Source of the DNA: Acanthosoma haemorrhoidale
Taxonomy: Eukaryota > Arthropoda > Insecta > Hemiptera > Acanthosomatidae
Direction: 5' to 3'
NCBI GenBank assembly: GCA_930367205.1
Contig: OV884011.1
Coordinates: 37,585,754 to 37,649,753 of the forward strand
DNA: 64,000 nt
Shown piece by piece: positions 23,119 through 52,274 of this stretch. The translations under genes were made by a program, and so were the position numbers. Positions within the stretch are counted from its first letter, which is position 1. Each line of letters starts with the position of its first letter. The notes beneath the pieces were generated by a model that was given only the letters and a program-made list of their open reading frames with translations, was not told the DNA's origin and did not search any database.

Positions 23119-23211
23119 AAGTACGTAGTGCCGTGTTATAATCGTGGAAAGTACGGGGGTCGTGAATCGTGTGATTGAGACTGATAAATCCGACGTATCC
23201 GTTCGAGAACT

Positions 23212-26974: not shown

Positions 26975-27495
26975 AACCACATGTTTGTATCACCGAAGCA
27001 GCTCAAGGCGATTCTTCGCCAGTGTCAGGGAAACGGAGCACCAGGGCACGGTGGGATACAAACAGTCCTGCTCAAACAAATGCCGAGGAGAGTGATAGTA
27101 TAACTTCCAAACTTATACAACTCTTGTATAAGATTGCGGTACTTTCCTTGGAAACAAAGCATCTTGTTTCCATTACTTAAGCCAGCAAAGAGTGGAGATC
27201 ACCCAGCCCACTACCACCCGATCAGCTTGTTACCGCAGACGGGGAAAATTTTTGAAAAAATTCTATTGAATTATGATATCTAAAAAATTACTGCAGACTG
27301 GATTTCAATCCATAATAATAAATAAATATTGCTCCAGTTTTAACTTCAAAATATTGTTATTGTAATTCTACCCTCCTTCGAATGCATCTGCGTATGCAGA
27401 AAGAGGAGAAATTTGTAAATCTTGTACATTGAATTTTGTTCATCTGTTTGTAAATAATGCTGTTAAATAAAGGGGTTTTGGAAAAATAAAAAATA
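26975..27495 (+). pseudogene. LINE copy C, 3' remainder with deleted RT
   Basis: It resumes after the Copia target duplication with the EN-RT linker, then the start of RT (near 27130-27280, ending in GKIFEKILLN-like sequence and TGFQS). It then jumps at about 27310 to the 3' UTR found in fragment A (CCTACCCTCCTTCGAATGC, then AATAAAGGGGTTTTGG). Most of RT is therefore deleted. The A/T-rich tail is followed by the TA target of the mariner at 27506. Confidence 0.75.
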
Positions 27496-28623
27496 TATAT
27501 ATATACAGAGGGGTTGAAAAAAATGTATCCACTCGTTAACAGTCCATAACTTGCAAACTAATTGACGGTTTTCGAAATGGTCACCATTAACATCCACACA
27601 CAAACGATGCCGCCGAACTGCAGCACGAACTACTGACTGCAACGTGTTCAGTTGGATATTTGCACATGAATGTACGATGGATTCTCGAAGTTCATCCAAT
27701 GTGCGTGGCTTTTGTCGATAAACGACGTCCTTTAGTGTTCCCCACAGGTAAAAGTCCAGAGGAGTTAAGTCTGGGGAACGTGGTGGATACTCTACAGCAC
27801 CTCTACGGCCCATCCATCTTCCTGGTAGATTTTCGTCGGGATAAGCCTTAACACGATTGCGGTAGTGGCCTGGAGCACTATCTTGTTGAAAGTAAAATCT
27901 TCCGTCTCCATACAAGTCTTGGATGGCAGGTAAAATGGATGTTTGAAGCTTCTGAAGGTACACCTCACCGGTAACTGTGCCGTCAAAGAAGAATGGCCCA
28001 ATCAAGCCCCGGTAAGACAACCCACACCACACATTTACTCCTGACAAATTCACGGCTTTGTCTACATGGACGTTTGGATTTTTGGCGGCCCAGTAGATGC
28101 AATTGTGGCGATTTACTGTACCATTGAGTTTGAACTGTGCCTTATCTGTCCACACAATCATCTCTGCAAACTCTTCATCGTTGCGCACCATCTTATTAAA
28201 CCACTCGCTGTACTCCATTCTACGATCTGGGTCGTCCTCGTTCATTGCGTGTAGCAATCTTGGGATGTAGCACTTCCACTTTGCTGTCTTCAAAATTCGC
28301 CGAACACTTGAGCGACTCACTCCAGTTTCACGGGCACACTGTCTCACAGACTTCTGTGGTGAGCGAGTGAATTGTTGTAACACAAGATGGGAGTTAAATG
28401 GACTTGTTACTGTTACAGGTCGTCCAGATCGTTGTTTGTTTACATCTTTAACACAGCCTTCGGCTTCAAATTTGTCTTGAATGCGACGAATCGTTAAACG
28501 TGTCGGTGGCTCTGCTTGATACACATTTCGCCATTTCCGTTGAGCCTCATTAATGTTTTCGTACTTAAAATACCACTTTAAAACAGACTTCCTTTCATCA
28601 AATGTAAGCCTTACGCCAGCCAT
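27463..28623 (-). CDS. Mariner (DD41D) transposase
   Basis: Cut-and-paste DDE transposase. I take the ATG at 28621-28623 (MAGVRLTFDERK); an upstream ATG adds eight unlikely residues. Residues 1-120 hold two helix-turn-helix regions joined by QRSGRP. The catalytic triad is D160 (IVWTDKAQF), D248 (FYFQQDSAPGH) and D290 (SPDLTPLDFYLWG), with exactly 41 residues between the last two, which places it in the DD41D group rather than classic DD34D mariners. The frame is open throughout. It has no stop before the left TIR, so the last residues (from about FENRQLVCKLW on) are encoded by the TIR and then by flanking LINE DNA to 27463. Plausibly active or recently so. Confidence 0.88.
   Translation of the reverse strand: MAGVRLTFDERKSVLKWYFKYENINEAQRKWRNVYQAEPPTRLTIRRIQDKFEAEGCVKDVNKQRSGRPVTVTSPFNSHLVLQQFTRSPQKSVRQCARETGVSRSSVRRILKTAKWKCYIPRLLHAMNEDDPDRRMEYSEWFNKMVRNDEEFAEMIVWTDKAQFKLNGTVNRHNCIYWAAKNPNVHVDKAVNLSGVNVWCGLSYRGLIGPFFFDGTVTGEVYLQKLQTSILPAIQDLYGDGRFYFQQDSAPGHYRNRVKAYPDENLPGRWMGRRGAVEYPPRSPDLTPLDFYLWGTLKDVVYRQKPRTLDELRESIVHSCANIQLNTLQSVVRAAVRRHRLCVDVNGDHFENRQLVCKLWTVNEWIHFFQPLCIYIYFLFFQNPFI
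27506..27568 (+). repeat. Left TIR of the DD41D mariner
   Basis: Begins CAGAGGGGTTGAAAAAAATG and ends AACTAATTGACGG. It pairs with 28769-28830. The transposase frame reads on through this repeat. Confidence 0.9.
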
Positions 28624-28768
28624 GTTTACTCGAGTAACAAGGTACAACTAACAATAAAACACTAACTATCTAGCGACTGTCATCTGACAAAACAAAACAA
28701 CGCAATACAACGCTTGTATGGCGATTGCCGGAACTACCAACTAATTCACTACCAAAATTGGGACAACT

Positions 28769-32354: not shown

Positions 32355-35300
32355 TCAGGAATAGGATTGTGTGCTTTTTGCACGGATGTTATTGCTGAAA
32401 CCATTCAATCGAATGTATTCTTCCTCCATATTTTCGTCTCCGAAGAAACCTCTGTCTTCTTCTTCTTCTTCAACATGCTCTTCAACACATTCTGCGAAAT
32501 CTTCTTCCACTACGGACCCTTCTCTTGGCTTGCGAACAGGTTTAGTCGTACCGTAGCATTGAATAGCAAATTTCAATTCAAGTAGAAACGCTTCTCCGGG
32601 TGATATCTTAAAATGAAGAAATATTTATTAATTCAACAAGTTATAAAAACTACTTAACATCAAAAAATTGGTGGTTAATAGCCAAAATCCATTACATCAA
32701 AATAATCCTTACAGTATTTTGCCGAGATGTTACTCAAGTACAAAATTTCTAATTGTAACACTCTATAGGTAAACCAAGTTTTGTCAATCAAAACTGATTT
32801 ATCATATTTATTTAATGCATTAAAATTTTAACCAGACATTTACAGAGATTAAAAGCTCTAAGCTGGGGAGAAATTAAGATGTTAAGTTTAAGTTACAAAG
32901 CATAATTAAATTTAAGGTATGTCTTTCACTTAAGAAAACAAAAAAAAGCAATGTTATATTTCCTGAATATAATTACCTTTTCTTCAACTGCAACTTTTCT
33001 TACATTCCAAAGAAATTCCAGGATTGAAACAAAGAAACCAACGACACAGCCTACTGCCAGTACCAAAAAGACACCACCCACATTTTCGATACCTAACTCT
33101 GATGAATCCGCCTCTTCTTTATCTTCAACCTATTATTGATCATCATATAATTAATTCCACGCTTAGTAGTATTAACAATGTTAATGATGTTATTAAAATA
33201 TTACTATCTTACAATGCATTTACTCTCGCCCTTCCACCATTTATCCTTCAGAGCCAAAAGTTTCCCACTTTCCTGCATTTTCAAAACTGAACCACTTATC
33301 GCAATACGGTATGGAGAATCTATCAACAGATGAAACCACCAGAAAAATAATTAAGTTTAAAATAATTATAGAATCTATCATAATTAGAAGAAAGCAGAAT
33401 ATATTTAAGCCAACAAATTAGCTATGGTTCTTTTGCTTAACAACATAAGTCAAGGAAAAATTAAATAGGTTCATGAAATGATTACTTATTTTAAGGGTCC
33501 ACAGAATTCTTCTTTATTTATTCTTTATATTTTTTCTTGAATTATTCCATTCAAGAAAAAAAATTTTATATTATGAAATATCATTATTCTTACAGAGTAT
33601 TTTTAAATTCGTTTTAAGCCATATCATGATTCTACTCTTAAAATCCTTCATGTTGTCTAGCTTAGCTCACACCAGCTGACAACAGACATTTTAGTTTCTT
33701 CCATGGGCTCTTATAAAAATTAAAAAAAATATATTAATAATTATTAGTTGTGGTGTACCATTGAGATAGGAAAAGGGTAAATCTACCCATCATCTTGCGG
33801 GGAGAAAACTACTGGTCCTTGTTTTGCCTCAGGAGAGTGAGTATGTAGTATGTATTTTGTTTCATATCATAAGCTTATGTTTAGTTTTAATGCAGATTGA
33901 TGTTCTGTTACCATTGTGAGCCCATTAAGTTTCTAATTATTATGTTCAAGATAGGATTGTAAATAGTTTTTGGTAGTATGGTAATAACATACCAGGTTAA
34001 ACATAACAAAAGCTGGCTGGGGGATTGTAAATAACATGTATTAATATTTCTTACCTCTGCTGCTATATATCCCTTATAATAAAGTTTTGTGTATAAAATC
34101 TAATTCATTGTAAATGTTCATATGTTTTCCCTAAAATTTTATTAATAATATTATATTTATGGAGTGTTTTAGTTACCATTATTCTGTTTTGTACTGTTAG
34201 TGTATAGGGTATGCATATGTATGAATTCTCCACTGTTTAATGGTACTCTAAATATATCTTAAGGGTAGTGATTTAATGCATAAGGGTTTAGATAACTAAT
34301 ACTTTGAGAGTTAAGTAGACTTTTAAGTTCAGTTATTTCCCTCAGTCCCATCAGTGGAATCTGACCCTTACCCTTTTGTTGTTTATTCTGTTGGTTCAAT
34401 TACCCTGGTGCAAACAGGAACCCTGAAGTAACAGGAAATTTTTATCTACTGATGTCCCCCCCTCACTTTTACTATGGCTGTGTGGTGTATGGGCGTCTCT
34501 CGGTGGAACTCAAGGACGAGTTGAAGTGAATCATGAATTGCTTCATTAGATTTGTCTTTGGGACTCTGCAGCGCTCCCATGACTCACCTCTATACCAAGT
34601 TAGGGTGGCTCTTCCCAGCACAATCCTTCCTCGGTTAATTCGTTTTTCAAACCATCAATTTGCATCACTTCCCTTTATATATACAATATCTTACAGTTCA
34701 AATCCACACTCCACTTCTGGAATACAAGATCCTGACTCTGACCTGCCTACAAAACTGCAGTGTACAATCTGTTCTTCCTGACTCAATCTACTACCCTTCA
34801 TCCTTACGAACCTTCAAAGCTTTCCAATTGCAACACTTCCTCGGCATCCAAAGGGACACTCATTATTCTGGTATTAATTCATTCTTTGTACATTAATAAT
34901 TATAATTATTATTCTTTGGGTACTTTGTCCCAAATTGTTTTCTATTATATTCTACCTTCATTTCTCATTGAAGAATGATGCCTTTGTTGCAATTTCAGGG
35001 TTACCTTTGGTTTCAGAAAATTATCTGCTGACATTGGAGGCCTTGAAGTTGTGTTACCAGAACAAGAGATGACTAGCTACTGGTTGCCTGGTTAAAATAA
35101 CAGAGTTCTCACCGTTGATGAATAGTGGGTATAATGAGTTACAGAGATTTTTAACCACCCATGAGATATGCCTTGATGCACTTGAAGCCCTAAGACTACC
35201 TGATAACTGAGATTTTCCCAAACTTGTACTCTCATTGAATAATTTACACTAGGTGTCACCTTTGAGGACAAACATCAATCACAATCTATACCTTCCCCCA

Positions 35301-38300
35301 AAGACTTGTTGATGTTTGTTACCGAACAGTGCAATGGTATGCACTTATACTGATGTTAAGACCCTAGTAATTACTAGCCAAAGAGTAAAACCTCTCTTTT
35401 AGGCTCATAATTATTAAAAATAATAGAATCAATATCACAACTTATCATTAATAACATATTAGTTATGTTCATGGAAAATCCTGACCTTATATTGGAGACC
35501 ACCACCAATATTGGAGAGATTTAAAAAATATAAACAGGTAAAGAACTATCACTGATAAATATAAGTAAGAAATTGTTATTTGTTCACATTTTCTGCTACA
35601 ATTAAGACTTCCTACTTGTTTTTTTATAGATCCTTGGCTGCCTAAACCTCTATCTCTACCAGTATCTGTTTTATCAGTAAAAATAAACATTGATTATAAA
35701 TGACGCTAGTGTAATTCAAGAAGTTTCAAAATAGATTTAAATACAGTATCATAATCATTTCTGGATGTTCTATTTAGTCCGGTCTCAACTTACATTAGTG
35801 TCATTCTCAGCTTATCAACACAAATATGTACAAATTTAAATTAAGACTCATACGGAAAGGCATGGCTATTCCATATCCTTTTGAATCGAGTAGACCACCA
35901 ACTTGCATCAGTTTATTGCAATGTTTTTCTTTTTGATATTCAATAGTGGTAGATTCCATGAAAAAGGCATATCCTCTCTTCCCACGTAGCACTCTGTCGA
36001 CTCCCTCGTCATTGTTCTTGGTGAAGACGGATGGTCGGGCAGAATCCATCTGGCTCCAAATTTTCTGGTAAAGGCTGGTATTGCTGTCCTATAAAGTATT
36101 AACAAAACAGTTCCATAATTAATACTAATAGTTTCCTCTTAAGGCAATGTTTTTATTGTGCTATGCCTTTGTATTGTTTAAATTACCCTGAAAAAATTAG
36201 CTGATGATCCTCCTGTCATGACGCCGTACTTAATCTTATTTTGATTAGCAAGGTCTTCAACACTCTCAATGGTTGCTTCCATTCTGTCCATGGTCAAAAA
36301 AGCTGCGAGATTTGCAGTGTAGGAGGAAATCATAATAAGAACAAAGAACCACCACATTCCTGCCACGACTCTTGTAGAAAGGGCTCTGAAAAGTTATTGT
36401 TGAATGATACTAATCTAATACAATATTCTCATTCACATACAAACTATTACTCTTCTACATCTTAATACAACTAAAAAAAAAAGGTCTAATCAAAAACAGC
36501 ATTAAGCACCTGTATGGATTATTAAAATATAAAAACCCTTACTTTGACCAGAGTTGGGAAATATTCTTCCTGTAGTTTTTGTTTCTTAAACAAAAACTAA
36601 ATGAATTTCCAACATATTTATTTATAACTAAGTTGTAAAAAATTACATTTTATTTTAGCAAATTTTCAAGTAATTCGCTGTAATTTTTTTTAATTAAATC
36701 AAATATTAAATAATTTTTTTTAGTTAAATTACTAGTTTTATTTACTCACTTTTAACTAATTTGTAGTTAGAACAAGTAGTTTTGATTGAGTTTAATTACC
36801 CATTTAGGTTAAAAAAGTTTTATCCAGCAACAGAAAAGGATATAACAAGTTTGAAAAAAAAAATTATTCCTTCAATTCAGGCTATGATCATTAATTTTTG
36901 AATGAAATGTAAAATTCAACTAGTAAATGCTATTTTGAAATTATTTTACTATTTACTTTCTCTTACTATTAATTGATAGTGTAAATAATTATACTAAATA
37001 AATCAGTTCTAATTCTAACTACTGATAATCATATAACTACTTGTATTTAAATATATTTAACTACTTTTTAAATTTAATTTATTCAGTATTTTTAAATTAT
37101 TCAAATATAAAGTAAATTAAAAAATAAATTTTATTATCAATTTTGAAATGTTTCACCATTATTAAAGTACAATTATTAATTATAAAAAAGTGAAATATTA
37201 GTTTCAAAATTAGTTTGTCAACTTAATTATATACATTTATCCCAATATCCAAATTCTCATTTTGATAATGTTAATTTTATAAATCTAATAATAAAGAAAT
37301 GATTTATAATTTTGTGGTGGTTCTACCGAGATGGGCAAACGTTACTCCCAAACCTTTTCCAAAAAATTGTTATTGCAGTGTCTGCACAATTTTTTTTTCA
37401 ATTCATTACTTGTTCTAAATACACGGATGGTTATTATTAAGGTTATGAGCGTTTCTCACTTGACAGTGCTTTCTTCTTCACCAGCATTAACTTTAGAGAG
37501 TTTTAAAAATTATTCATTCGATCAAATCTCCCTATTCTCAAAGTAGACAACATTAATCTAGCCTTCTTCCTTATAGCCTAGAAAGCCTTCTCACTATCAT
37601 GTCAGCCATTTCACAATTGCAATATAAGTTCTTACTGTCAAATTTTGGAAAAACGTAAGTTTAAATTTTTTTTATGAAAAATTTTAACTTTAATTCACCT
37701 TTCTCTGGAGAATCACCATTAGGTAGACTCACTAAACAAGGTAAAGAATTCTTTGATTACTTTTAAAACATCACATATTAGGTTGATAAAAAAGTCCTTG
37801 TGCATGAAAATATCCTTTTTTTTTTTTTTCTTTTTTTTTCTAAGCTCTCTAGTTAGAATATTCGGATGAGGGATAAATATAAAATATTTAGGGTGATCGG
37901 ATCCTTGTACTAGGAGGACCTGCTTGAAGGTGGTGTGAGAGGAGTAAGGAGTGTGGGAATCCTCGGTGGAGGTTGATTGTTACGGCACAGTGGTAAAATA
38001 TCCTTATTTGACCTCTTTGTTTATATAGTTTGTATCACTGTTAATAGTGACAAATCCTTCATTAAATTACGTGCCCCAAACAGCTTCGCATTTCATTTAT
38101 TATTTTATGGTTTATATAATTCAGAATGTCTGAAGAAAAAATTGTAATTCGTGGTCTTTTAATTATAAAACACTACTGGAAAAAATGATTGAGAAAAATA
38201 CTCAAGTTCAAACGCTTCAATGGTGGGGGAATGTCAGTCTTTGCGACACGTCTCGATAAAGTCACCCTTCAGTTGTCAATGATGAATCACTTGAGAGCGT

Positions 38301-41300
38301 CAGTCAGGATTTGATGAGACCAAAAAATAATGGTAATATATTTGAGGAGTAACATTTAAGTTAGTATTTTATATTCATTTTTGAAATAAACCAGCTTTAT
38401 TTAAAAGATTTTTTGTAAAAACCTAGTAAGTATGCTATTAAAAACCTATAGTTTCAGTTAATGGTAAAAAAATTTAACTGTTTTTACTTTTAGCCTAACT
38501 CTCAATTATTTTTCTATATAATTCTAAACTAATACTAACCCATAATAATAAAATTTTCTATAAAAAAAATAAATACTTATTTCTGCATAACCATTATTCA
38601 AAAAAGACATGCGATCAATTAATAGTGTGTTTTGCATTCACTGTTTATTTTAAAACAGTTGTATGTCATATGCCTATAACTGTGATTGTCATTTATAGGT
38701 TAGAAGGAACACCAAAGAGCAATATCTTACTGGGGTGCAATATCAGAGCCTTGTTGCATTAGAGATCCAATATTGTGCCAAATAGCATTGTATATTGGCA
38801 AAGCGTTTTCAAGTTCATCCGGGTCTGGTTTGCATGGGTGAGGGTTTTTCCATTCCATGGGAGATATCCTGTAACAATGTTAGTTCTCGGTTAGTTCTTT
38901 CTCACGAGATTACATGCTTGTTCCGATGACAACAGAGCCACTTCTGCCTTGACGTTTTCTCACTTCAAAAACTCACTTGATCACTTGTGAGTACTACACA
39001 TTTGGAAGGAGGGGTATAAGACATATACACAAGGATTTGTAAAGCCACTATGAGGTTAGTTAGTTAAAACAGTAACCATGCAGTTTCTTTTATGAAATAT
39101 TAGTAATGCATTCCTTGGGGGTCGCCTGTCTCGGAGAAGGGATGTCCTTTGGTTTATTCTTACTTTGGCAAAAGATCACAGCCTTGAGCCATAAGAGAGC
39201 CGATAGAAAACCAAAGGCAGTTGTGAAGCGAGAAGATGCACTCAAGTTCGGTCGGATCTGGGTCACATGGGTGAGGATTATCCCACTCATCGGGCGTGCA
39301 TCTGCAACAAAGATTATTTTCTACTTCTACATTTCTAATGTTAACACTACTACATGGAATAAAATGCATTAATTATTTTAAGTTTATTTTAACTCTACGG
39401 ACAAACAGCACTTGAAATAACCTATACATGTAATGTTAAATACTTTTAACAGCAGGGTTCGAAGCAGTCAAAAAATAAATAAAATTGAAAATTAATAAGT
39501 AATAAAACCAAGATTTCAAAATTTCCATTATTAATAATTTTAGAATATAAATTATTTTAGTAAAGTATAGTAGTAAAGCAATAAAGTGAATCATAAAATC
39601 GATTCTTTATTTGTATGTATCTTTAAAATATCTAATATACATAACAAATAAAAAAAAAATCAATGGGCACTTATAATTAATTACAATGCTGCTACAATTT
39701 TTTAATGTCCATATTTACTATATTTTTTTTAATTCAATAATTTTTCTCCAAATTTATCTATGTTTATGGGCTATAGCTTACTTTTTTATTAATTACTTTG
39801 TTTTCAAATTGTTAACTGAATTCATATCTATTACTTAATGTCACTTGAAAAGCTTTTAAATATATGTAATATAAAAGTCTCCAGCTCCCTAAGGTTTGGT
39901 CTCGTCAGAAATCTGAGGTCATAAAATTAAAAAGTAATTTCATGAAGGGTATTTAAATCCCATTTTTTGTGGCTAGGAGCAGCTAGCTATAAATAAGTTT
40001 TATAGTTTGTAATAGATAAAATACATTATTTAGTTCGAACCCTGTTAAAATATTAGTTTAAATTAATGAGATAAAAAATATTACAAAAAAAAACAAAAAA
40101 CTATATACTTCCAACATTACTTTAAAAAAGCTCAGTATAAAAGCAAGAAAATTTCTAAACAGAGGATGGGTGATGGCTGATGAATACGTACTATAAAGGC
40201 CAACACACAAGCTATTCTAAATAAAGACAATTCAAAAGGAGTTGTGGAAATTAATAAAAAAATACAAACATGTGAGAGTTTGTTGTCGTGAGGAGAAAAT
40301 ACTGAAAAGAATGAAGTTTAAGAAACTATTTTAAATAAAAACCAGTATTAGTTCATGGATCATAAACTGACAGTTCTTAATGGACTTAATCAAAGTAGAT
40401 TATGTTGCTTATCAGGAATAGAAAATATATTGTTTAGAGTTGAATGTAGAGTTTAGTTTTTTAAGAGGAATGATATGATAAATAATAAAAAAAAATTCTA
40501 TCATATTGAGTAGAATATCAAATTAAATATCTCAATGACCTAATTAATTGTCATTATATGTTGGGTTTTTAGAGTACTATAGTCATATAAAATCATTAAA
40601 GGTGTCAATAAATTTATTTTCAATACTGTAAAACAATACTTGATAGTGTGATAAATCACACTTCACTTTATTTTTTTTTTTTATTTTTTTTTTTTTTTTC
40701 AGGCAAGCTACTACGTATATAATTTTATAAAAATAAATAGAAAAAGGGTATACACACATTGGAAATGAGCAGTTTTATGCACTTAAATGATACTTATAAA
40801 ATCCAAATCATATGAAATGTTCAAAGTAATCATCACGCTTTTAAAATTACCTCAAGATCCTGAGAATAACTAGACCAACTGATTCAGACCAAAAAGATGA
40901 CCAATCATTTGTACTTTCTTAATTTTTTTTAATTTTCACATACATTAAGCACTGTCAGTAATCCATGATCTGGTGCTGTGTTGACATAACTTAACAAATA
41001 TTTAAACAATTTGTTTAGTGGTACAGTGTACCTCTGCTTCTGAATGATTAAAAATTTTATGTTTGGATTTGTATTAATAAAAATTGAAAGAAATTTAAGA
41101 TGTTCTGAAAATATATTTTTAATTTGTTAAGTTTTGTTCTCAAAAAATACTTTGATGGTAAAATTGAAGTACTGTTACTCTACCAAGTATAAGGCACCTA
41201 TAGTTTAAATGACAATTTTATTTTACTTCAATTATATTATCAAAAAATAAATTAAAATCGATGAGCTCTATAATTCAAAAATATATTTATATATCAAAAG

Positions 41301-44300
41301 GGTTATTTAGTTATTAAACAATTAAGTGTCTTAATACTTTTCTTTGCATTATTTAAAACAAATATAGAGTAAGTAACAATTATCTAAAACTACAATAAAG
41401 CTGGAACACATGAAGTATGTAGTTGACGATGTTACGTGATTCTCATCCTTAAAGTACTGGTATCTCGAAGGCATCAGATAAACAGACACATCTTTTGGGA
41501 TGACTTCAACCGCTGAGAAATAAAAATATTTTTGAAATCTATTTATACTCTTTAAAGATAAATATCATAAGCATAGTTATATTAAAGATATAAAAATAAA
41601 CTGTCTCACTTGTAAACATTTTTTATTTCTCTATTTCATACTTAGCCGTGAGTGTATTATGCGTTGGGATATCCGCTTAGGTTGATGAATGAGAGATGTT
41701 GGATTTTCATCAAATTTATTAATGAACAATGTTTCAACACACAATAATTGTTCGATTTGCATAGCAATAACTGTACTGCTTCCTCTTCCTTTGGTTGGGA
41801 TTTTCGTTTAGCAAAACTTGCTTTGCCAGAAACCCTGAGATGACCAGTATCTGTCTAGCACTTCTTGAATACGTTGTATACAGCCAACATCTCTTACTTC
41901 TGTCCTCGAACCATCCCACATATGTATGGTATAGGTAAATTAAAAAACTTACTAACAGTTATATTATCTATGTTATTGTTGTTCTCTATGTAACTTCAAA
42001 TCTTTTAATTATTAGCAAATATCTATAGATCGTTTCCTTCTCACTTATAACATACACTTATTTCTTGTTACTGTCAACTTTTTCTGTCCAATTATTACAC
42101 CATTATCTGTGAATACTTTCATTCTCCTCTCATTAAACTTGTAACACACTTTTGTCATTTTTTTCCTTTTTATATATTGTCAAACTATATATTACAACAA
42201 TATTTTTTGATAGTCACATTCAAAAAGAGTTTTATTTTAAAATAAATATTTAGTTAGATGGAAAAGCTAGAAGATGTATTTTTTAGACTTTAGGTATAAA
42301 ACTAGGCAACCAAGGGTTTACCTCAGGGAAAAACCACATATATATGGTTTGTCAATTTGAGCCAATATTCTTACTAACATGAAATAATTATGTTTCACTT
42401 ATATTCACTTATTTTTTTTGCATTCTCATTAATAATAATTGTCACACTTTTTTGCTAATCAAGATCTAACCCATGAATGTCATTCGTATAAGATCAATTT
42501 GATGAAAATGTAACATATTTCTCTCATCAATCAAAGCTGATATCCCAATAAACAATTCACTCATAGTTTTTGTCTCCTTTCTCAAAATCTTCAGGAGGGC
42601 AATATGTTTCAACTTGTTTTTTGCAAAGTGTTGCACTTTCTACTTTTATCAAATTCAAATTTTGAGAGTGGTAAATAGGAATTTATTTATTACTCAAGTA
42701 TTATTCTGAAGAAGGGTATATATACTTGATATGTATATATAAACACACTGCTCTGTTAAGGTCACATGAATTCTATTATTAAATTGCCAAATGTCTGATT
42801 AAATTGCCAAATTTATAACAAATATCTTAATAAGCTGTCCTTGGTTTAAAGTATTCCTGTAAAAATTGAACATTTAAATTAATATTAATACATATTACAG
42901 TGTGAGTTACTTGTTTCCCTGAATATATAAATGAGTTGAAGGTTTTTTTTGGAAGTTATGTTGATGAAAAAGAGATGTTAGGTTTTCATCAAGTTTATTC
43001 ATGGACAACATTTCAATATGATATGTATGTCTGCATCAGGTCCCTGTGCATAATTCACAGAGACAATCATGCACAAACAGCAAAATTCAGTCAGAAGTTT
43101 AATAAAACCGTTTAGTTAATTGGATAGATTTAACCTTTTCCTTTCCACCTCCCTACAAAACCTTCAATTCAATAATAATTATTAAATCACTTAGGGCTCA
43201 TTTACATTTGTTAAGTATTAATTAGTTAAAAGCAGGTTTTTTTAAGGGCATGTCGACCACAAGTGTCATTGACACCCGAAAGATCCTCTTTTAAGACAGA
43301 TTTTAAAGCAGTTTCTTCACTTCAACATGACTGGTAATGAACTAGATTAAATAATTGTGTCCAAAGCTGTGAAGTTGATTAATAGTAGTATAAAAATAAG
43401 TTATATTATAATTATTATATAAATTAATTTTATCAAAATTTGATCGCCACCAATGTCTTACCTAGCCAGGAAATAGAGTAAAAGGGATACACCTAAATAG
43501 GCGGTAGCCATATATGTCCAGACGTCTATTGAAAATGGCGAGAGGAAGGAAAATAAATCTGGCGGCTGCTTTGTTGGTTTACTGTACAAAATACTGATTC
43601 CTGGGGGAAAAAAACAAAATTCAACTTTCTATTTATTTATTAAAGTGTTATAATGTAACTGAGTATAGTAGAAAAGTGGTACACATAAAGAGAGACAAAA
43701 TCCAACATTTTCCAGTTCTTTCCCACTATCCCAGACCACCTTGTCAGGCTTGGTTAATAATATTTATAATACTAATTATTACTTGTGGCAACCATTCTCA
43801 CTGGTGTAAATTTTAAATTATAATTTAATGCTTCACTAGCAAAAGCAACATAAAAAAAAAAATGAAATGGTACAAAATATATGCCTAAAAATTATCAATA
43901 ATTACCTAAACTATACACAAATCAATAAGATGCATAGAGAATTAAATTGTGATAATTCTCATAAACTTTTTTTTTATGACTGCCCTTATTCAATAAATCC
44001 CATGATTAAAGAACTAGGAACTAACACTGGATTTATGTGGAAGTGTTACATGTATAAGAAAACAAAAACATTGATGACAATCTTATTTTATTAAATTTTT
44101 AATGTATTTTTTTATTATTCAAATTGTCTTTAAGTTACACATTACTTTGTTATTTAGTTGGGTTTATGTTACTTTTTCCTAACATTGAAAGTTTGTTATA
44201 TCTTTTAAGAATTTATGTAATATTAAACAGTGTATTTGAGGTAAGTCAGTATATGTGTATTGTTTAAAAAAAAATGTTTTAATTTAATTATATTGTGTAA

Positions 44301-47300
44301 ATTATTTGTTAGCTTTAACAAACAATTATTATTCATATTTGTCGTACAGTAAAAAGATATTTTATAGCAACTAGGCAACTAGTTTTTTGGGGGGAATTAT
44401 CCCCAATCACCCGGTTACTCCACAGGTGGTCTGGAGGCTGGAGGTGGTCCTAGATATTGGTGAAGTGTAAGTTTTCCACTGTATTGCTAAAAACTAATTT
44501 CCATTTTTTTTAAGGTCATTTGTTTTTGCTGCTATTTTATATTGTCCCTTACATTCTGGTATTCAAACTTTACACAGTTTCAACCTCAACTCGGGACTGA
44601 TAAAAAATTGGCATTTCATCTTTCTTTTGTGGGCTTTTCAATTGTTAAGTTAACTAAATTGTGTATATTGTGATACCTAAGTTCATGAAAGGCATAGTGA
44701 AATCGACCGCACTCCTTCTTTCGTAAGTTATAGTCAGATCGCATATAGCGAGATCAGCTTTCTGTAATAAATGATTACAATTATCGAATTATTATTTTGG
44801 AATGTAAAATATTGTAACTATATTTTTATGATCAATTAATTTTATACATTAGGAATACGAGGGTGAAAGTCTGAAAAGTTTCTGACCTAACAAAGCTTTT
44901 ATTTTAGCTTTTATTTCACTAGCTTTTATTTATTTTATTATCATCTTCATGTTGAGGTTGGAAACTTTTCAGTCCAGCAGTGTAAGCTGATTTTGGTTTT
45001 GTCAAGAGAATTGAATTCTTGTTTAAAATTATATTGATAAATAAAAAGAATGTGCAGGAATGCCTAGTTTAGTATCTAGGGTATAAGCCAGGATGGCAAG
45101 GGATGAATAGACGGGATGAATAGACATGATGAAAAAAGTATAGTTTGAGAGAGGAGGGACTGGTATGAGTTCAGTTAGTGCTTCTTCTGAGAAGAGAAAC
45201 TGAGGCGATTTGGTGTTGGAAGCAAGAATTTATTCTGGGCCAGCAGAGGAGTGAGGAGATGATTTGGAGTTAAAAAAGTTATTTATATATCAGTTTTGTG
45301 ATACTAGAATTAAAAAAATATTTTAATTATATCTAACTTATCTATAGTCATCTATATTTTAAGAAACCTTTAAATCGCCAAAATATACACTAGAACCACT
45401 AGAAATCATCTTAAATAATACTTGCAAAATAAATTAGTATTCATTAAAAACTTTTAATAATTTTCCTTTACTCGTTATAAATAAGCAAGTAAAATATAGT
45501 TATAGTATCCTCATATGAGGCCTTTAGAATGCCTGGATTAGGGTTGTTTTTTGTATCTCCAGTAAAATTTCTGGAAATGGACACAGCGGGTTTTGATTCT
45601 AAAGGCCTCATATATTCTGGTAAGAAGCAAAGGGCTGTAACTGACAACATTTTGGAAACAGATAGTACAGAGCTGAGATCATTATGAAAATCTCAAGGAA
45701 GATACAAATACAAATGTAAGAGTGTAGTAGATCATACTTTGAAATTATATATTGGACGTAAATTCATTTGAGTTTGAATTAAAGGTTAATTCATAAACTT
45801 AATTAAAAAAACCAAATTAAAAAATAAGTACAGAACAATCTTTTTTTTTGTGTGTTTTTTTTTAATACACGCGTTATTCTGTCTTTGATGTCCCCGACTC
45901 CCCCCCCCACCATGCCAGATGTAAACAGACATGCCCACTCTTACTTTTCCCACCCTTCCCTAGCTGCTTATTCATTCGCGACTTGCGCTCCAGTGCCTCT
46001 TCTTCATCCACTGTTTTATTTAATGAGTGTATGTATGATGTCAATGAAACAAAAACATGTGATATTAACTTAATGTCACAAACAGGAGATTATTAAGAAA
46101 CTGGAGAAATAAACCATGGCTAACCTGGCACGAAATTATGATATTGGAAGATCCACAATCTGCGACATCAATGTCTACCACGATTAAATCCTAGTTTGTT
46201 AGGACTTCTAAAAGGGATTTGCAGAAAAGAAAGACAGTTAAAACAGGTGAGTGTCCTGAAATGGGAAATTCTTTATTCACTTGGTTTATGCCTTCAAGGT
46301 ATATATGGCATTATCAGGTGAAATTCTTCGAGAAAAGGCAAAAATTTGTCCCGCTGATGAAAACGAAACCAATGATGATGTGGATGTTTCAACTGGAATA
46401 ACTGCAACCAATAGCAGTGCATTCGACACACTCAATGTTTGCACGAAATGGGTAGAAGAAAACAATATTGCAAGTGATGATGTATTAGTGTTAAAAAGGA
46501 TGCAAGAAGTTAGCTAAGAAACAAAATACAAATTAAAGACTATTTTTCATAAACTTTCTTCAGTAATTTTTATTTTATTTGTTTTTAGCATGTACATATT
46601 TTGTTTTATATGCACATAGATATTTGTTTATTTCTGAAATATTTACCATCATACTTCGTATTTCCTCATACATTATATTTGAATATTGGCAGAATCTACA
46701 GGAGGCCATTGAGGCTGCATTATATTTGGAGTTTTGGGATCAACAAAACACAATACTTGGGCTGGAGATAGACAATTAGAGACAGAAAAATTGTAAAGGA
46801 CTTAAAAACAGTGTATGTCTTTTTTTTCTTTTCTTTTTTATGTAAATGTTTGGGTGGCAAGGAACCTCCTGAGAAACAATAAATTATATGTTTAAATGTT
46901 AAATTGATTTTTGTTTTTATATTAGTAAATAAACAAAACACTGAAATATACATGTACATACAAATATGTAAAATTGTTTTGTTTTTTTACTTCTGATAAT
47001 CCGGCAGTGTTCTGGTCCCATATGTGTCAGATTATCAAAATTGTACTCTATTCTTTACAGTTTTATTTTGTTATTTACACATTCCAAGCCCTATAGTCTC
47101 TGAAAATAAACTGCTACCATTTGTATTGCTTCATGGGCTTTCTTTTGTAATGAAAGTGGATCAAAATGATTTTATTTTGTGGTATATTAGAGAGACTAAA
47201 ATATCATTTTATTGTTGAAAATCCCATTAGTAATTAATTTAAGCTGAACAAAGAAAAGTAATTGTTACATATATAAGACGTAAATAAAAAATTACCCTCT

Positions 47301-50300
47301 CTCTCAATTCCTTGATGAGACCATTCCACTGTTTGGTATCTTTGTTGAATGAACCATAAGCCCCATCAGGTGCTAAATAAAATTTGTATTTGAAGTTGAG
47401 ATCCTTAGCAATTTCATCTATGAGGTCCATTGAATATCCTTCATAGCGGGCGTTACCTTCTAGGGATGGATCGACCTCGCTCAGATATGGTCTTCCCTTC
47501 AATACACCATGGTGCACAAAACAAAAATTTATAACGTACAGAAATAAATTTACTCACAATATAAACTCACTGTACAAATATACTCACAAGTCTGGAAACG
47601 ACCATAAATGTCTTATTGCTTATACTTTTATACATCTCCTGTTTCATTTGACTCTCAGTTCTAGTATAAGAGATCCCTTTTTCAGGGTCCCATTGCCCAA
47701 TTTTCCTGAAACCATTTTTAGTCAGCTCTGTTATGTCCAGTGTAAAAAATGATCTTCGCCCCTCTTCATCGAATTTAATAGTTCCTGTCATACCCTCAAC
47801 AATGATCTGGAAAATGTATCATAATCATTGGTTATGTAATATTACATAATCAAAATATTATTAAAATAATTTTAAGAAAAATACTAAAATCTGAATTATT
47901 AACCAAAGAAAAAAGATGTACACAGGGTTCCTGCACCCAGGACCTCTCTAATTGATACAAAAGCTATTAATTTATAATAATTAACTCATACATCATGGCT
48001 AACAGGTTTAATAGTTTAGGAATAACACCTAACATTATTTGACATTAATTCCAATGGTTATAAATAAGATAACAAAATTAAAATAATAATTACTTTTATT
48101 TTTACATAATTGACATAATTTTTATCGTTTCATCACCGGAAACCATTATTTTTTTCATAAGTGTCTTAGTTTGATTTTTAGTCCCATGTTTAACTAAGAG
48201 CCATGACATTTTTAATTGAAATAAAGGTTTAAAGGTAAATACAAATAATAAATAGTTGTCGTCTTGCATAGTAATATATAGTATTTTCTGTGTTCTTAAG
48301 TGAATTATAGTTACAAAAAGGTGATAAAACTGTCAATATTATCTTATAGGCAGTTCATTTGTAACTTCCATTCAACCTAGAAGTATAAAATTTCACATCC
48401 TGGTTACTCTTTTCCATGCCCCAGCGATGAAAAAAAACACTTTTCCAATATGAAAACTAGCCTCAGTTAGTAGAGTCCCTGACTAGATATTGGATAGGTC
48501 ACGGGTCTAAATTCCGATTCTCCCAAAATATGTTTTCTTTGGCTAGTAATTATTAATATTAATATAATTTTTTTTTGTCTCAACTATCTACCAACTCTTC
48601 AACAGATAATTCAAATCTAAGAAGCTATTGCTTATTTTCCATTCAAAGCCACTATTTTAATTCATAATTGGTTTGAATATATTACTTAAATAACTATGAA
48701 TAGATAAAAATATGTATCAGTATTAAAAATAGATTAGTTTCATACACACATATATCAAAAAAAAAAAGTCGAAAAGCTTATATGACTCACTTTTTTCATT
48801 TCATTATTAATGATAGAACCATGATACCATTTCTCAGAATTAGAACACTGCAATGGCATGACTTCCATCTCTTCCGGGAGCTCTTTTTGCACTCGCTGGA
48901 GAGCTTCTGAGTAGACCTTGATTGCATCATATGTCAATGCGGCTTCTGTCTGAAATCGTACAGGGTTAATAAATCACATCCAACTACTAAAACACAATTA
49001 TAAAAATATTTGATTTAAGTGTTTTTAAAATAGGTTAGTTATGTTTTTCAAATTTTTGATGGAGGTGATTTTCTGCTCTTGGAGTTCTCGAGCTGGAACT
49101 TTTAAAGGAACCTGAGATATTTATTTCTCAGAGAATCATGAAAGTTTAAAAAAAAAAAACCTTTGAATATAACCAAGAAATAGAACTCTGCTTTAGAGAT
49201 TAGAAATAGAACAGGTGAGTTAGGAGTTACTTTTAGTGTGTCTGCAGTTAGTTGAAGATTATCCTTTAGTAAGGTTTTGTGAAAGAAGACCCAATCTTGC
49301 ACGGTGCTCTGTACATAGTGGCTCTGCGGGTTTATGAGTCTCAGTGTGGTGATATTGGTCGTCTCCAATTGCAGATCAGAATAGTCCAAGGTGTGGGCAT
49401 CCTGAAAAAAGAATTTTAAATTATCAATACATCTTAAAATCTTCGACATGACTTCAACTCTAGCCATAACAATAGTAAAAATTTTGGATTATGCTGATTA
49501 GCTTTTAATTAAGGAATACTAATGTGAAGCATTAAAAACAAATAATAAACATAAAAAATTAGACATTTTTGTATGATACAAAATATTGAGCAAATTATTT
49601 GGCCACAGAGATTTTTATTTGTCAATATTTTAGCTGTTTACAATTTTTTTTTTTTTTTAGAAGTAATCAGACCGGGGAGATTTTACAAACAAAATTAATT
49701 GTACTTAACGATATGGTTATGGATTAATTTAAACGACAATCATTTTCTAGAATATGTAACATTTTTGAGACACAAAAATATTATCACAATAAAGTAATAT
49801 ATTAAATTAGAGACCAAAATTAGGTAAATCACTACCTATTGCCTAATAAATAATTAGTCTCAAAATCAAAACTTTACCAAAAAAATTCAAAGGGAATATG
49901 AAAAATTATAGCTTACCAAAGATGTCAAAACGTAGCTATGGTAATCTCCAAGCATTTTGACTTCTTTTGCTTGTTTCAAGATATCAATGATTCTTTCAGT
50001 AGAACAATCCAGTACGATATGAGATTCTGAGGTCCTCTGGATCTCCTTCAGTATAGGTCTATAACAAAAACAACAAAATAAATGTTTATGCATCCTGTTT
50101 TGAGTAGAATATCAAATTGAAGAACTTGAAGGCCTGATAAACAATGTTTGTGTTTTGTTGTAACTATAATTTGGAAAAATATACTAAAACTGTCAATAAA
50201 ATCATTTTCAGAGGCATAACAAAACCTTAAGTGTGTGATCCATCACAATTGACTTGAATTTGTTGAGGGATCTTCACACCTGCAGTGGTTTACCATATGA

Positions 50301-52274
50301 AATAATCTGTTTCATTGGTACTAGAATATATAAGGGTAATAACCTTGTGTCTGTTTGAATTAATATTTAATTTACGAGCACCTGAGGTCTCTTGTATTAG
50401 GGTCCAGTTGCCAAACAGTAAATGGAACATGACCTTCTGAGGTAAAGGATCTTTTATGTGATTTGAGCAGCTCCTGGAGGCGTATTAGGCCATCATTGTT
50501 TTCGTAAATTATGGTATATTTATTCCAATCCATATCATTGACAACAGCTACCAGTGCCTGGAAAACATTGCATTTTAATTTATTAATAAATATATGATCC
50601 TAATTAATTTATCACTCCCATCTTTATTCATCTATCAAAAATTATAAAATCTATACATATTTTAACAATATGTGAAAATGTTTGTCTACACACAAAATTG
50701 TTTGCTTTAAGTACTTTCAAAAATGAATTTTTATTTTCAAAATCTAAAACAAAGGTGATTAAGGTAGACAGACATCTAGGATAGACATAGTAATGGATAA
50801 ACATTATCTTTTCAACTGTCTATAAAATTCAGCTCACAAGCGGCACACCGTTACTATATACTATAACACTTCACATAAATTTATGAGCTATCTCAGTTAG
50901 AAAACAATATCAAAGGAACCCTACCTTTGCCAAGAGATCCGGATCTGGGTAAAGGTTGATCGCTGATCTAGAAGGCATTGAAGATATATCCCAGAAAGTC
51001 TTGATCATCGGGATCTCCATTGAGTCGCAGAGAGACTCTGTGATTCCAACTGCCTCAAGGGATTGCGGGCCAAAGATTCCACCGATTCCCTCGTTTGTCA
51101 GATCGCAAACTGCTCAAACACATCATTTTATTAGTACAAATTTATTTTTTTTAATTTTATTATATGGTGTTATTATCAAATGGAAGCAAGAAAAAAATAG
51201 GACTAGTATAAAAAAACCCATAATATAAATTATAATTGTATTATAACACAATACAATAAGGAAATTGTAATAAGGATATAAAGAAAATATATAACCTGCT
51301 AAAATATATGAGAGGAAAGATTTAAGATTCAGTGGCAGGTAGGTAAATATTTTTCAGAAAGGAAATTGAAGGGTTTGCTGCAAAAAGGAGGTAGCTCCAT
51401 CCCATGGCTGTTGGGAGTTAGAAACACTTTCTTGTGTCAAAAAAAACCTCTTTTATTTGGCACAAAAAGGATGCAGCTCCAATCGTAATATGTAAACACC
51501 ATAATTGAAAGTAAGCAACAACAATATTTTTACATAACTTAAAATTTGAATTTTTTAAACGTTTTGTTTGGTTTCCCAACAAATGGAAAAATTGGAGCTA
51601 CCTCCTTTTTGCAGCAAACCCTTCAATTGTGAAAGTAAATATTTTGCAGTTGTCAAAATTTAAATGTGAAAAAAGGGGTGTAATTGAAAATAAATCTGAC
51701 TGAAACTTGATATTTAAAAGGTTTACCTCGTCTGCTGATATTGTAGCTGTCGAACGATGAAACATGTTCAATGCGTTCCTCCAGAAACACCTTCTCTTCC
51801 CCATAGTTGTTATCTTGGATAATATGATTAACATTTTCCACTGCTAGTTTAAAAACTAGTTCCTGTTCTGCATCTCCAGTGTGAAAGAATCCAGCTTTAA
51901 AATAAATATATTCTTCAGAATAGTAAATAATTAATAACATTCATTATGAATACTGCATGTTTCAGAAAAAATATGAGATCAAACGATAAACTTGGACAAG
52001 GTAATAAATTTAAAAAATTTTCAAAAGATAATAAAGTAAAAATTTCACAGTTTAAAATAAAATATTGGTTAAAGAAAATATGAAATGAAATAATTAAAAA
52101 TTAATCGGGTTATAATCTTGTTTTGATTCCACAATTAATCATTAGTGATTAATAAAAAAATATATTTATATTTATTGTTTTTGAAAATAAAGTCTGATAT
52201 ATACCTATTGGTATCTTTGCAGTTGAAGAACATTTCAAAATGATGAGGAATATTAAACAATTAAAATAATCCAT
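32355..52274 (-). CDS. Kainate-type ionotropic glutamate receptor subunit (17 coding exon positions, 932 aa)
   Basis: Ligand-gated cation channel subunit of the plasma membrane. Exons: 52205-52274, 51727-51894, 50925-51109, 50382-50557, 49917-50058, 49231-49401, 48791-48949, 47588-47806, 47296-47496, 44677-44761, 43462-43600, 39164-39301 or 38731-38868, 36187-36385, 35854-36088, 33213-33319, 32977-33129, 32355-32606. All borders are GT-AG and phases match. Residues 1-19 are a signal peptide. The amino-terminal domain runs to about 425. S1 has [12 protein letters not shown] and [14 protein letters not shown], keeping the ligand-carboxylate Arg. M1 is at 546-570 ([15 protein letters not shown]), the pore loop at 572-617 and M3 includes [13 protein letters not shown]2 has GGSSANFF and [10 protein letters not shown], keeping the acidic ligand contact. 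M4 is at about 815-840. The C-tail has EEEEED. The Pro of vertebrate APLT is Asp here. Introns hold transposon remnants. The exact paralogue group is uncertain. Confidence 0.93.
34460..34895 (+). pseudogene. LINE RT C-terminal fragment in a receptor intron
   Basis: Plus-strand translation gives [18 protein letters not shown], a frame break or stop, then [21 protein letters not shown] and later [14 protein letters not shown] text, matching the region downstream of the RT domain in CR1/Jockey-like LINEs. The family differs from the LINEs at 18-27 kb. Decayed, in the intron between the S2 exons at 33319 and 35854. Confidence 0.55.
37783..38340 (+). pseudogene. Decayed mariner fragment in a receptor intron
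   Basis: It starts with TTAGGTTGATAAAAAAGTCC, a mariner-type TIR. A plus-strand N-terminal transposase remnant runs from 38127 ([12 protein letters not shown]), then SLRDTSR-like and [16 protein letters not shown] near 38260-38310, the linker around the conserved GRPS motif. The catalytic domain is missing. It lies between pore exon B and the M3 exon. Confidence 0.5.
38731..38868 (-). CDS. Glutamate receptor pore-loop exon, version B (Gln at Q/R site)
   Basis: 138 bases, the same length and phases as version A and about 55 percent identical to it in protein. It encodes [18 protein letters not shown], then [17 protein letters not shown]. The Q/R position is Gln. It has its own acceptor (GTTACAG|GATATC) and donor (CCCCA|GTAAGA). 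The open frame, intact splice sites and conserved pore residues argue that it is a used alternative exon, not a relic. Confidence 0.85.
39164..39301 (-). CDS. Glutamate receptor pore-loop exon, version A (Ala at Q/R site)
   Basis: 138 bases, phase 2 in and out, encoding the M1-M2 linker and re-entrant pore loop ([18 protein letters not shown], then [17 protein letters not shown]). The residue at the Q/R selectivity position, first after the Met, is Ala, and the GCD following it is arthropod-like. It ends AA|GTAAG and joins the M3 exon at 36385 to give K-ALSTRVV. It lies 295 bases upstream, in transcript order, of version B. Confidence 0.88.
40500..40660. repeat. Partial copy of dispersed repeat R1 in a receptor intron
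   Basis: Contains AATCATTAAAGGTGTCAATAAATTTATTTTC near 40590 (interrupted match), AAACAATACTTGATAGTGTG and a terminal ATCACAC, matching the R1 landmarks at 50.2 kb and 8.65 kb. Confidence 0.3.
41682..41750. repeat. Dispersed repeat R2, copy 2
   Basis: GAGATGTTGGATTTTCATCAAATTTATTAATG without the divergent flanks, then ACAATGTTTCAAC. It matches 42961-43050 and, less closely, 6712-6795. Confidence 0.5.
42961..43050. repeat. Dispersed repeat R2, copy 3
   Basis: GAGATGTTAGGTTTTCATC, AAGTTTATTCATGGACAAC, ATTTCAATATG, then CTGCATCAGGTCCCTG. The last block aligns with CACCATCAGGTCATG in copy 1, so the family extends to about 90 bases. Confidence 0.5.
45510..45615. repeat. Short inverted repeat in a receptor intron
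   Basis: TATGAGGCCTTTAGAAT near 45514 and its reverse complement ATTCTAAAGGCCTCATA near 45596, separated by about 65 bases. A hairpin-like or MITE-end structure of unknown origin. Confidence 0.55.
46030..47045 (+). pseudogene. Tigger/pogo (Jerky-like) transposon remnant in a receptor intron
   Basis: The N-terminal CENP-B-type helix-turn-helix is recognisable at 46035-46180: [35 protein letters not shown]. The start of the second DNA-binding domain follows at 46220-46340 ([19 protein letters not shown]). It then jumps to a C-terminal motif ([21 protein letters not shown]), so the DDE core is deleted. The right end near 46990-47035 carries the Tigger-type terminus CTGATAATCCGGCA...GTCAGATTATCA. 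Non-coding now, between exons 9 and 10 of the receptor. Confidence 0.6.
48440..48560 (+). repeat. tRNA-derived SINE-like repeat, copy 2
   Basis: CTCAGTTAGTAGAGTCCCTGAC matches the D-arm region of copy 1, followed by GGGTCTAAATTCCGA (B-box) and a tail ending TTTCTTTGGCTAGTAATTATT. Inserted in the receptor intron between exons 7 and 8. Confidence 0.5.
50160..50290. repeat. Partial copy of dispersed repeat R1
   Basis: Contains AAACTGTCAATAAAATCATTTTC, GCATAACAAAACCTTAAGTG, and GTGTGATCCATCACAATTGACTTGAATT in broken form, matching R1 at 8650-8740. In the intron between receptor exons 4 and 5. Confidence 0.4.

What the first reader, a model, noticed from the sequence alone, without database searches (positions are those of the whole stretch)
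38731..39301. Tandem, probably mutually exclusive pore-loop exons in a kainate-type glutamate receptor differing at the Q/R site
Both exons are 138 bases, both are phase 2 in and out, both have intact GT-AG borders and both encode the complete pore loop. Version A carries Ala at the Q/R position (SLMAQGCD) and version B carries Gln (SLMQQGSD); flanking charges also differ (DPDPTELE versus KPDPDELE). In vertebrates this site is known to control calcium permeability and polyamine block and is altered by RNA editing. Here the choice would be made by exon selection. Including both exons would keep the frame but double the pore, so exclusivity is expected. Most tandem-exon swaps known in glutamate receptors are flip/flop exons, not the selectivity filter; novelty is my inference.
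Basis: partly seen in the sequence, partly recalled or inferred. Interest (0 to 1): 0.88.

Follow-up and report, generated by a model that had tools for sequence, protein, structure and literature searches.

The report
Swappable pore exons in insect glutamate receptor
An insect gene for a glutamate-gated ion channel holds two neighbouring versions of the exon for the channel's pore, one with alanine and one with glutamine at the site that sets calcium flow in related channels, and cells likely splice in one or the other; predicted proteins of many other insects and some crustaceans carry such a pair, so arthropods would have a splicing-based counterpart to the RNA editing that vertebrates use at this site.

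Summary
A kainate-type receptor gene runs on the minus strand (about 51.9 to 32.4 kb). Between its TM1 and TM3 exons lie two 138-base exons of equal phase with GT-AG borders, each encoding the whole pore loop: A (39301-39164, Ala at the Q/R site) and B (38868-38731, Gln). The pair is old: 32 database proteins of insects and crustaceans carry two such segments in series. The second has Gln in 32 of 32; the first has Gln in 16, Ala in 7, Arg in 7, Cys and Gly in 1 each. In the window gene's family the first exon is Ala, Gly or Thr in 22 of 29 proteins. In the KaiR1D-type paralogue, all 11 hymenopteran first exons identified have Arg, the residue that editing makes in vertebrates. This genome's KaiR1D-type gene has tandem pore exons too. 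Public models Homalodisca X1 and X2 differ only inside this 46-residue segment. Exclusive use is not proven: no RNA reads were available, some predicted models contain both exons, and the reading frame enforces no choice. I commit to exon choice that sets calcium permeability and polyamine block. Ten full-text searches showed no description of it.

The parts
39164..39301 (-). Pore exon A (first exon): 138 bases, SLMAQGCD, Ala (GCT) at the Q/R site
   Evidence: Splice borders and frame; codon; up to 44/46 residues shared with other insects
38731..38868 (-). Pore exon B (second exon): 138 bases, SLMQQGSD, Gln (CAA) at the Q/R site
   Evidence: Splice borders and frame; codon; up to 42/46 residues shared with other insects
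38869..39163 (-). 295-base spacer intron between A and B; CTAAC motifs at 270 and 281 of 295; no pairing with the flanking introns above shuffles
43462..43600 (-). TM1 exon (E10), constant upstream partner
36187..36385 (-). TM3 exon (E12, SYTANLAAF), constant downstream partner
39302..43461 (-). Intron upstream of exon A, 4,160 bases
36386..38730 (-). Intron downstream of exon B, 2,345 bases
44677..44761 (-). Exon E9, ligand-binding S1 (ADLAICDLTITYERRSAVDFT)
47296..47496 (-). Exon E8, ligand-binding S1
47588..51894 (-). Exons E1-E7 of the amino-terminal domain (51894-51727, 51109-50925, 50557-50382, 50058-49917, 49401-49231, 48949-48791, 47806-47588); the first coding exon was not found
35854..36088 (-). 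Exon E13, ligand-binding S2
33224..33319 (-). Exon E14, end of S2
32929..33129 (-). Open frame with TM4 (NVGGVFLVL...EFLWNVRKVAVEEK); exon borders not resolved
32358..32624 (-). Open frame with the C-terminal tail (ISPGEAFLLELKFAIQC...STQSYS), similar to the tail of Halyomorpha P0001; exon borders not resolved
   Evidence: P0001 sequence

Best explanation
This is a kainate-type glutamate receptor gene with two homologous 138-base pore exons, Ala or Gln at the Q/R site, of which each mRNA likely takes only one, so that splicing would set the channel's calcium permeability and polyamine block. Shown: two intact exons with matching phase and splice sites, and both kinds of segment conserved in predicted proteins of other insects. 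Inferred: one exon per transcript; a Gln (B) subunit that makes a calcium-permeable, polyamine-blocked channel; an Ala (A) subunit that lowers both. Inferred history: one exon duplication at or before the base of Pancrustacea, before the gene was copied into a KaiR1D-type gene and the window gene. The second exon kept Gln; the first changed by lineage: Ala, Gly or Thr in the window family, Arg in the KaiR1D-type gene of Hymenoptera, Gln elsewhere. What makes the choice exclusive is open; with no intron pairing or spacing constraint found, trans-acting splicing factors are my guess.
For: Exon anatomy, equal phase and length. Homalodisca X1 and X2, 936 aa each, 910 identical, all 26 differences within residues 580-625, i.e. 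this 46-residue segment. Both segments in 32 database proteins; second segment Gln in 32 of 32. Window family: first exon Ala 16, Gly 3, Thr 3, Gln 7 of 29; second exon Gln 19 of 19; the Asp four residues on kept in 29 of 29 and 19 of 19. KaiR1D-type first exon: Arg in 11 of 11 hymenopteran, Gln in 9 of 9 other. Same layout in this genome's KaiR1D-type gene. A-only transcript-like contig P0008. Ser at this site lowers calcium permeation in GluA2 and in a placozoan receptor, and Gln raises it there (PMC12226733, section 11).
Against: No RNA reads were available. Predicted models with both segments in series exist, also among multi-isoform annotations (Halyomorpha X2, Rhodnius X2, Lycorma X2, Vespa X12, Bombus X4, Anabrus X3). 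Both-included and both-skipped forms stay in frame, so decay of wrong products cannot enforce exclusivity. No docking-type pairing above shuffles, no U12 donor pattern, no distant branch point needed. Ala itself was not measured in the paper read. In 16 of 32 two-pore proteins both exons have Gln, so Q/R difference is not the general purpose of the pair.
Confidence: 0.75

Rival explanations
1. The exons are chosen alternatively, but the main effect is on gating, assembly or subunit partnering rather than on calcium permeability and polyamine block.
For: A and B differ at 21 of 46 residues (25 shared), most of them outside the filter; in 16 of 32 two-pore proteins both segments have Gln.
Against: Within the window family the first exon is Ala, Gly or Thr in 22 of 29 while the second is Gln in 19 of 19; Hymenoptera changed the same residue, to Arg, in 11 of 11.
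Confidence: 0.15
2. Both exons are often included together, giving a subunit with two pore loops in series, perhaps a dominant-negative or non-conducting form.
For: Frame stays open with both; 32 database proteins have both in series, some of them named isoforms of RefSeq style.
Against: Other records have one segment only: Homalodisca X1/X2, P0008, Vespa X10 second only against X12 both (718 of 719 otherwise identical), Andrena X9 first only. Gene models that chain open exons, and clusters represented by long members, would favour the double form (inference).
Confidence: 0.07
3. One exon is a silent relic or the pair is an assembly artefact.
For: Nothing beyond the lack of RNA data.
Against: The exons agree at only 83 of 138 bases and 21 of 45 third codon positions, so they are old; both are intact and similar to segments of other insects; single-gene hits in a 72-contig assembly.
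Confidence: 0.03

Closest known systems
NALCN leak channel, alternative selectivity-filter exons 15a/15b and 31a/31b (PMC3557258; abstract in listing, passages)
   Same: Tandem, homologous, mutually exclusive exons spanning the re-entrant pore loop, differing at the selectivity residue, old and lost in some lineages
   Different: Four-domain leak channel, Glu or Lys; not a glutamate receptor. Here a tetramer of kainate-type subunits, Ala/Gln or Arg/Gln at the Q/R site
Q/R-site RNA editing of vertebrate AMPA and kainate receptors (established knowledge; related passages)
   Same: Same pore residue; two forms from one gene; Arg form of bees and wasps equals the edited residue
   Different: Here two exons encode the forms. 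Ala (GCT) cannot be reached from Gln (CAA) by A-to-I editing (inference from the codons)
Flip/flop exons of AMPA receptors (recalled)
   Same: Tandem mutually exclusive exons in a glutamate receptor
   Different: Flip/flop change the ligand-binding S2 segment, not the pore loop
KaiR1D-type insect kainate receptor
   Same: Sister family in the tree; its gene in this genome and predicted proteins of several orders have the same tandem layout
   Different: The window gene lies in a separate clade (23 rows, SH-aLRT 99) without a holometabolous member in my sample; its first exon is Ala, Gly or Thr in Hemiptera, Polyneoptera and a louse

Membership tests
Kainate-type ionotropic glutamate receptor | Amino-terminal, glutamate-binding and ligand-gated channel domains | tested here: met
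   PF01094, PF10613, PF00060 over their cut-offs
Kainate-type ionotropic glutamate receptor | Closer to kainate than to AMPA or NMDA receptors | tested here: met
   GluK2 676, GluK1 666, GluK3 640 bits; best AMPA row 514 bits; GluK5 530 (best 60 of 400 shown)
Kainate-type ionotropic glutamate receptor | Glutamate-gated current | not testable with these tools
   Needs expression
Mutually exclusive exon pair | Neighbouring, homologous exons of similar length and equal phase with intact splice sites | tested here: met
Mutually exclusive exon pair | Exactly one exon per mature transcript | tested here: inconclusive
   For: Homalodisca X1/X2, P0008. Against: 32 predicted proteins with both. No reads available
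Mutually exclusive exon pair | A device that enforces exclusivity (docking pairs, U2/U12 mismatch, steric spacing, frame) | tested here: inconclusive
   None found. Pairing test on one genome has little power
Alternative selectivity filter by exon choice (NALCN-like; works like, not a member) | Exons span the pore loop and differ at the selectivity residue | tested here: met
Q/R-site RNA editing | Two pore forms made by A-to-I editing of one exon | tested here: not met
   The two forms lie in separate exons, GCT and CAA. Editing of the CAA codon of exon B was not tested

The most novel reading that the evidence does not exclude
Arthropods carry a hard-wired, splicing-run counterpart of vertebrate Q/R editing. 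A pore-exon duplication at the base of Pancrustacea gave kainate receptors two interchangeable selectivity filters; one copy stayed Gln, the other was retuned more than once, to Ala, Gly or Thr in the paralogue of bugs, stick insects, cockroaches and lice, and to Arg in bees and wasps. A neuron sets calcium entry by exon choice.
Probability: 0.6. Interest if true: 0.88.

Novelty: new variant of a known kind. Interest (0 to 1): 0.8.

Why it matters
Q/R-site control of calcium permeability is a textbook case of RNA editing. Here the same residue would be switched by exon choice, in receptors of insects that include crop pests, disease vectors and pollinators. It makes a long-standing question testable, namely why one receptor gene must supply two pore forms: each exon can be tagged, deleted or forced on its own. 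It would also mean that calcium and polyamine data from one insect kainate cDNA describe only part of what the gene makes.

Tried and rejected
Docking sequences: the best ungapped pairing of the spacer with intron 10, intron 11, the last 800 bases of intron 10 and the first 800 of intron 11, and of these two 800-base stretches with each other, was matched or beaten by 60, 38, 38, 78 and 98 of 100 dinucleotide shuffles.

Steric spacing by a distant branch point, as in OGDH (PMC7969005: abstract in listing, passages): not needed, because another AG lies 15 bases before the final AG of the spacer and CTAAC motifs start at 270 and 281 of 295, so an ordinary branch point fits. CTAAT at 61 and CTAAC at 101 also exist.

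Nezara P0005 (A) and P0046 (B) looked like an isoform pair and are called so in my note; they differ along the whole protein (689 of 822 identical) and look like two paralogues, so they are not counted as evidence.

Rows dropped or handled by hand: from the count of 32 I left out the window itself, P0051 (looks like a fusion of two neighbouring genes) and P0062 (second pattern match outside a pore); P0041, P0043, P0044, P0045 and P0054 were located by hand because the pattern missed or shifted them. The gene tree lacked P0045 and P0090, which had no parsed pore. Several of the 29 window-family proteins are near-copies or paralogues (three Timema species plus P0016, which is alike and whose name was cut off; P0017/P0018 one gene; P0010/P0020 and P0004/P0011 paralogues; P0043/P0044 one locus), so evolutionary events are fewer than proteins.

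A third pore copy in the window: none at E up to 1. A second gene of the window type in this genome: none among 18 matches. Structure prediction was not run; it would not decide the question.

Literature: 10 searches of open-licence full text; no listed paper is about alternative pore exons in a glutamate receptor. Several listings were capped (20 of 30, 25 of 206, 10 of 15, 20 of 130 papers). Passages of PMC2924276, PMC3923563, PMC8956072 and PMC11188076 do not mention it. Subscription papers were not seen, among them, recalled, the 2013 survey of mutually exclusive exons in Drosophila and the 2016 KaiR1D paper.

Full report
What is in the window. The window lies at C1:37585754-37649753 of an unnamed 865.6 Mb genome in 72 contigs. 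Its minus strand holds a kainate-type receptor gene. I placed 13 constant exons from 51894 to 33224, plus open frames for TM4 and the C-terminal tail down to 32358; the first coding exon was not found. The product has ANF_receptor, Lig_chan-Glu_bd and Lig_chan domains. Its best solved relatives are GluK2 (676 bits), GluK1 (666) and GluK3 (640); the best AMPA row has 514 bits (best 60 of 400 shown). Its nearest protein by tree path is Nezara viridula P0046 (91% over 335 columns), then Halyomorpha halys, so the insect is probably a true bug near the stink bugs (inference).

The two exons. Exon A (39301-39164) and exon B (38868-38731) are both 138 bases with ag and gt at their borders and begin and end in the same split codons. 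Each runs from just after TM1 to just before TM3 and so encodes the whole re-entrant loop. A reads SLMAQGCD, B reads SLMQQGSD; the Q/R codons are GCT and CAA. They agree at 83 of 138 bases, with 27, 34 and 21 of 45 at first, second and third codon positions, and at 25 of 46 residues: an old duplication under protein constraint. The frame is open with either, both or neither.

Both copies are kept in other insects. A protein search seeded with exon A returned 20 proteins; those with a legible organism name are all insects. One seeded with exon B returned 136, best 120 listed. One seeded with the first KaiR1D exon of Bombus returned 106, many of them fish kainate receptors with Arg at the site. 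Halyomorpha P0001 matches A at 44/46 and B at 41/46, against 270/387 for the amino-terminal domain. Homalodisca vitripennis X1 and X2 have 936 residues each, 910 identical, and all 26 differences fall within residues 580-625: X1 has the A type (Thr at the Q/R site), X2 the B type. P0008, 896 residues, sits on a contig of only 2,790 bases and has the A segment only; since the gene here spans about 19 kb, such a contig is best read as a transcript (inference).

Two pores in series in predictions. Thirty-two database proteins hold both segments (with sequences). They come from stink bug, kissing bug, planthoppers, whitefly, psyllid, thrips, louse, stick insects, katydid, beetles, bees, wasps, dragonfly, mayfly, ostracods and an amphipod (names). 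I read many of them as gene models that chain every open exon, but some carry isoform numbers (for example Halyomorpha X2, Vespa X12), and real double inclusion is not excluded. The second pore has Gln in 32 of 32; the first has Gln in 16, Ala in 7, Arg in 7, Cys in 1 and Gly in 1.

Two gene families. A tree from the ligand-binding and TM3 regions without the pore (58 rows, quick method, SH-aLRT only) puts the window gene in a clade of 23 rows (99), sister to a KaiR1D clade of 18 rows (85). The window clade holds Odonata, Ephemeroptera, Thysanoptera, Phasmatodea, Blattodea-like and Hemiptera rows and no holometabolous insect; the seven holometabolous rows in the tree all fall in the KaiR1D clade. 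In the window family the first exon has Ala in 16, Gly in 3, Thr in 3 and Gln in 7 of 29 proteins, the Gln cases being dragonfly, mayflies and thrips; the second has Gln in 19 of 19. In the KaiR1D family the first exon has Gln in 9 of 9 non-hymenopteran and Arg in 11 of 11 hymenopteran proteins that I identified. Part of the hymenopteran hits came from a search seeded with an Arg exon, which may favour Arg. For proteins predicted from genomes the Arg must be in the DNA.

This genome's own comparison set. The KaiR1D-type gene at C1:166235880-166235341 has tandem pore exons of 138 and 141 bases with a 261-base spacer, both Gln. A third kainate-type gene about 29 kb away shows one pore exon in the stretch read. 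The other non-NMDA pores matched appear single in the 3-kb loci read, one with Arg (GTFLRQG, C5:5752027). One gene of the window type was found.

Order of events. In a tree of 58 pore segments (46 columns) the first exons of both families group (93/87) together with one ostracod and one prawn segment. The second exons of the window family group (96/83) with two ostracod second exons, a springtail segment and an unnamed one. The KaiR1D second exons join neither group; they lie unresolved near the base. A clade of both KaiR1D exons is rejected (p 0.026), a clade of both window-family exons is not quite rejected (p 0.062), and all first exons of both families as one clade is not rejected (p 0.33). 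So the exon duplication most likely came before the gene duplication, at or before the base of Pancrustacea. With so few columns and an unsettled bootstrap this is a lead, not a proof.

Mechanism. I commit to exon choice, one per transcript. What enforces it is open: frame, U12 donor pattern, spacing and intron pairing gave no answer, so trans-acting factors are my guess. The expected effect follows from work on this residue. In GluA2 a Ser in place of Gln lowers calcium permeation; a placozoan receptor with a native Ser is less calcium-permeable and its Gln mutant more so (PMC12226733, section 11 read). Ala was not measured there; Ser is the nearest proxy. The Asp four residues on, reported to be critical for polyamine regulation (passage), is kept in 29 of 29 first and 19 of 19 second exons of the window family, so block may be weakened rather than lost. 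Since both exons have Gln in 16 of 32 two-pore proteins, the pair must have had another use first, or still has.

What is new. Choice of a selectivity filter by tandem exons is known in NALCN (PMC3557258, passages). Control of the Q/R site by RNA editing is known in vertebrates. Ten full-text searches of open-licence papers listed no report of alternative pore exons in a glutamate receptor. Annotation pipelines have already modelled such isoforms (Homalodisca), so the pieces are public even if undescribed. I rate it a new variant of a known kind.

Limits. There were no RNA reads and no nucleotide data from other insects; the organisms of some database proteins are unnamed; permeation effects rest on sequence and on work in other receptors.

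Noticed in passing
C5:5752027-5752176 of the same genome (L014): A separate glutamate receptor subunit with Arg at the Q/R position (GTFLRQGSGLNPK), so this genome also has a fixed Arg pore in another gene.
   Followed up: partly
P0030 (Trinorchestia, amphipod): First of two pore segments has Cys at the Q/R position (TFLCQGADIAPR), second has Gln.
   Followed up: no
P0001, P0005, P0046 (Halyomorpha, Nezara): Stink bugs seem to have two paralogues of the window gene; the window gene is closer to Nezara P0046 than to P0001. This genome shows one only.
   Followed up: partly
P0012, P0020, P0045, P0015, P0018: Gly or Thr in place of Ala at the Q/R site of the first exon, so a small residue rather than Ala itself seems to be kept.
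   Followed up: partly
53912-54967 plus strand; 4187-4636 minus strand: Long open frames that look like a translation initiation factor 2B subunit and a small nuclear ribonucleoprotein of the Sm kind (by eye, recalled names, not searched).
   Followed up: no
23188-26691 plus; 27466-28647 minus; 20825-21475 minus; 57004-57351 minus: Open frames that look like a copia-type element, mariner-like transposases and a non-LTR reverse transcriptase (by eye, not searched).
   Followed up: no
46260-46514 plus strand, between exons E8 and E9 of the receptor gene: An open frame on the opposite strand (MALSGEILREKAKICPADENETNDD...) that looks like part of a transposon-derived protein; not searched.
   Followed up: no
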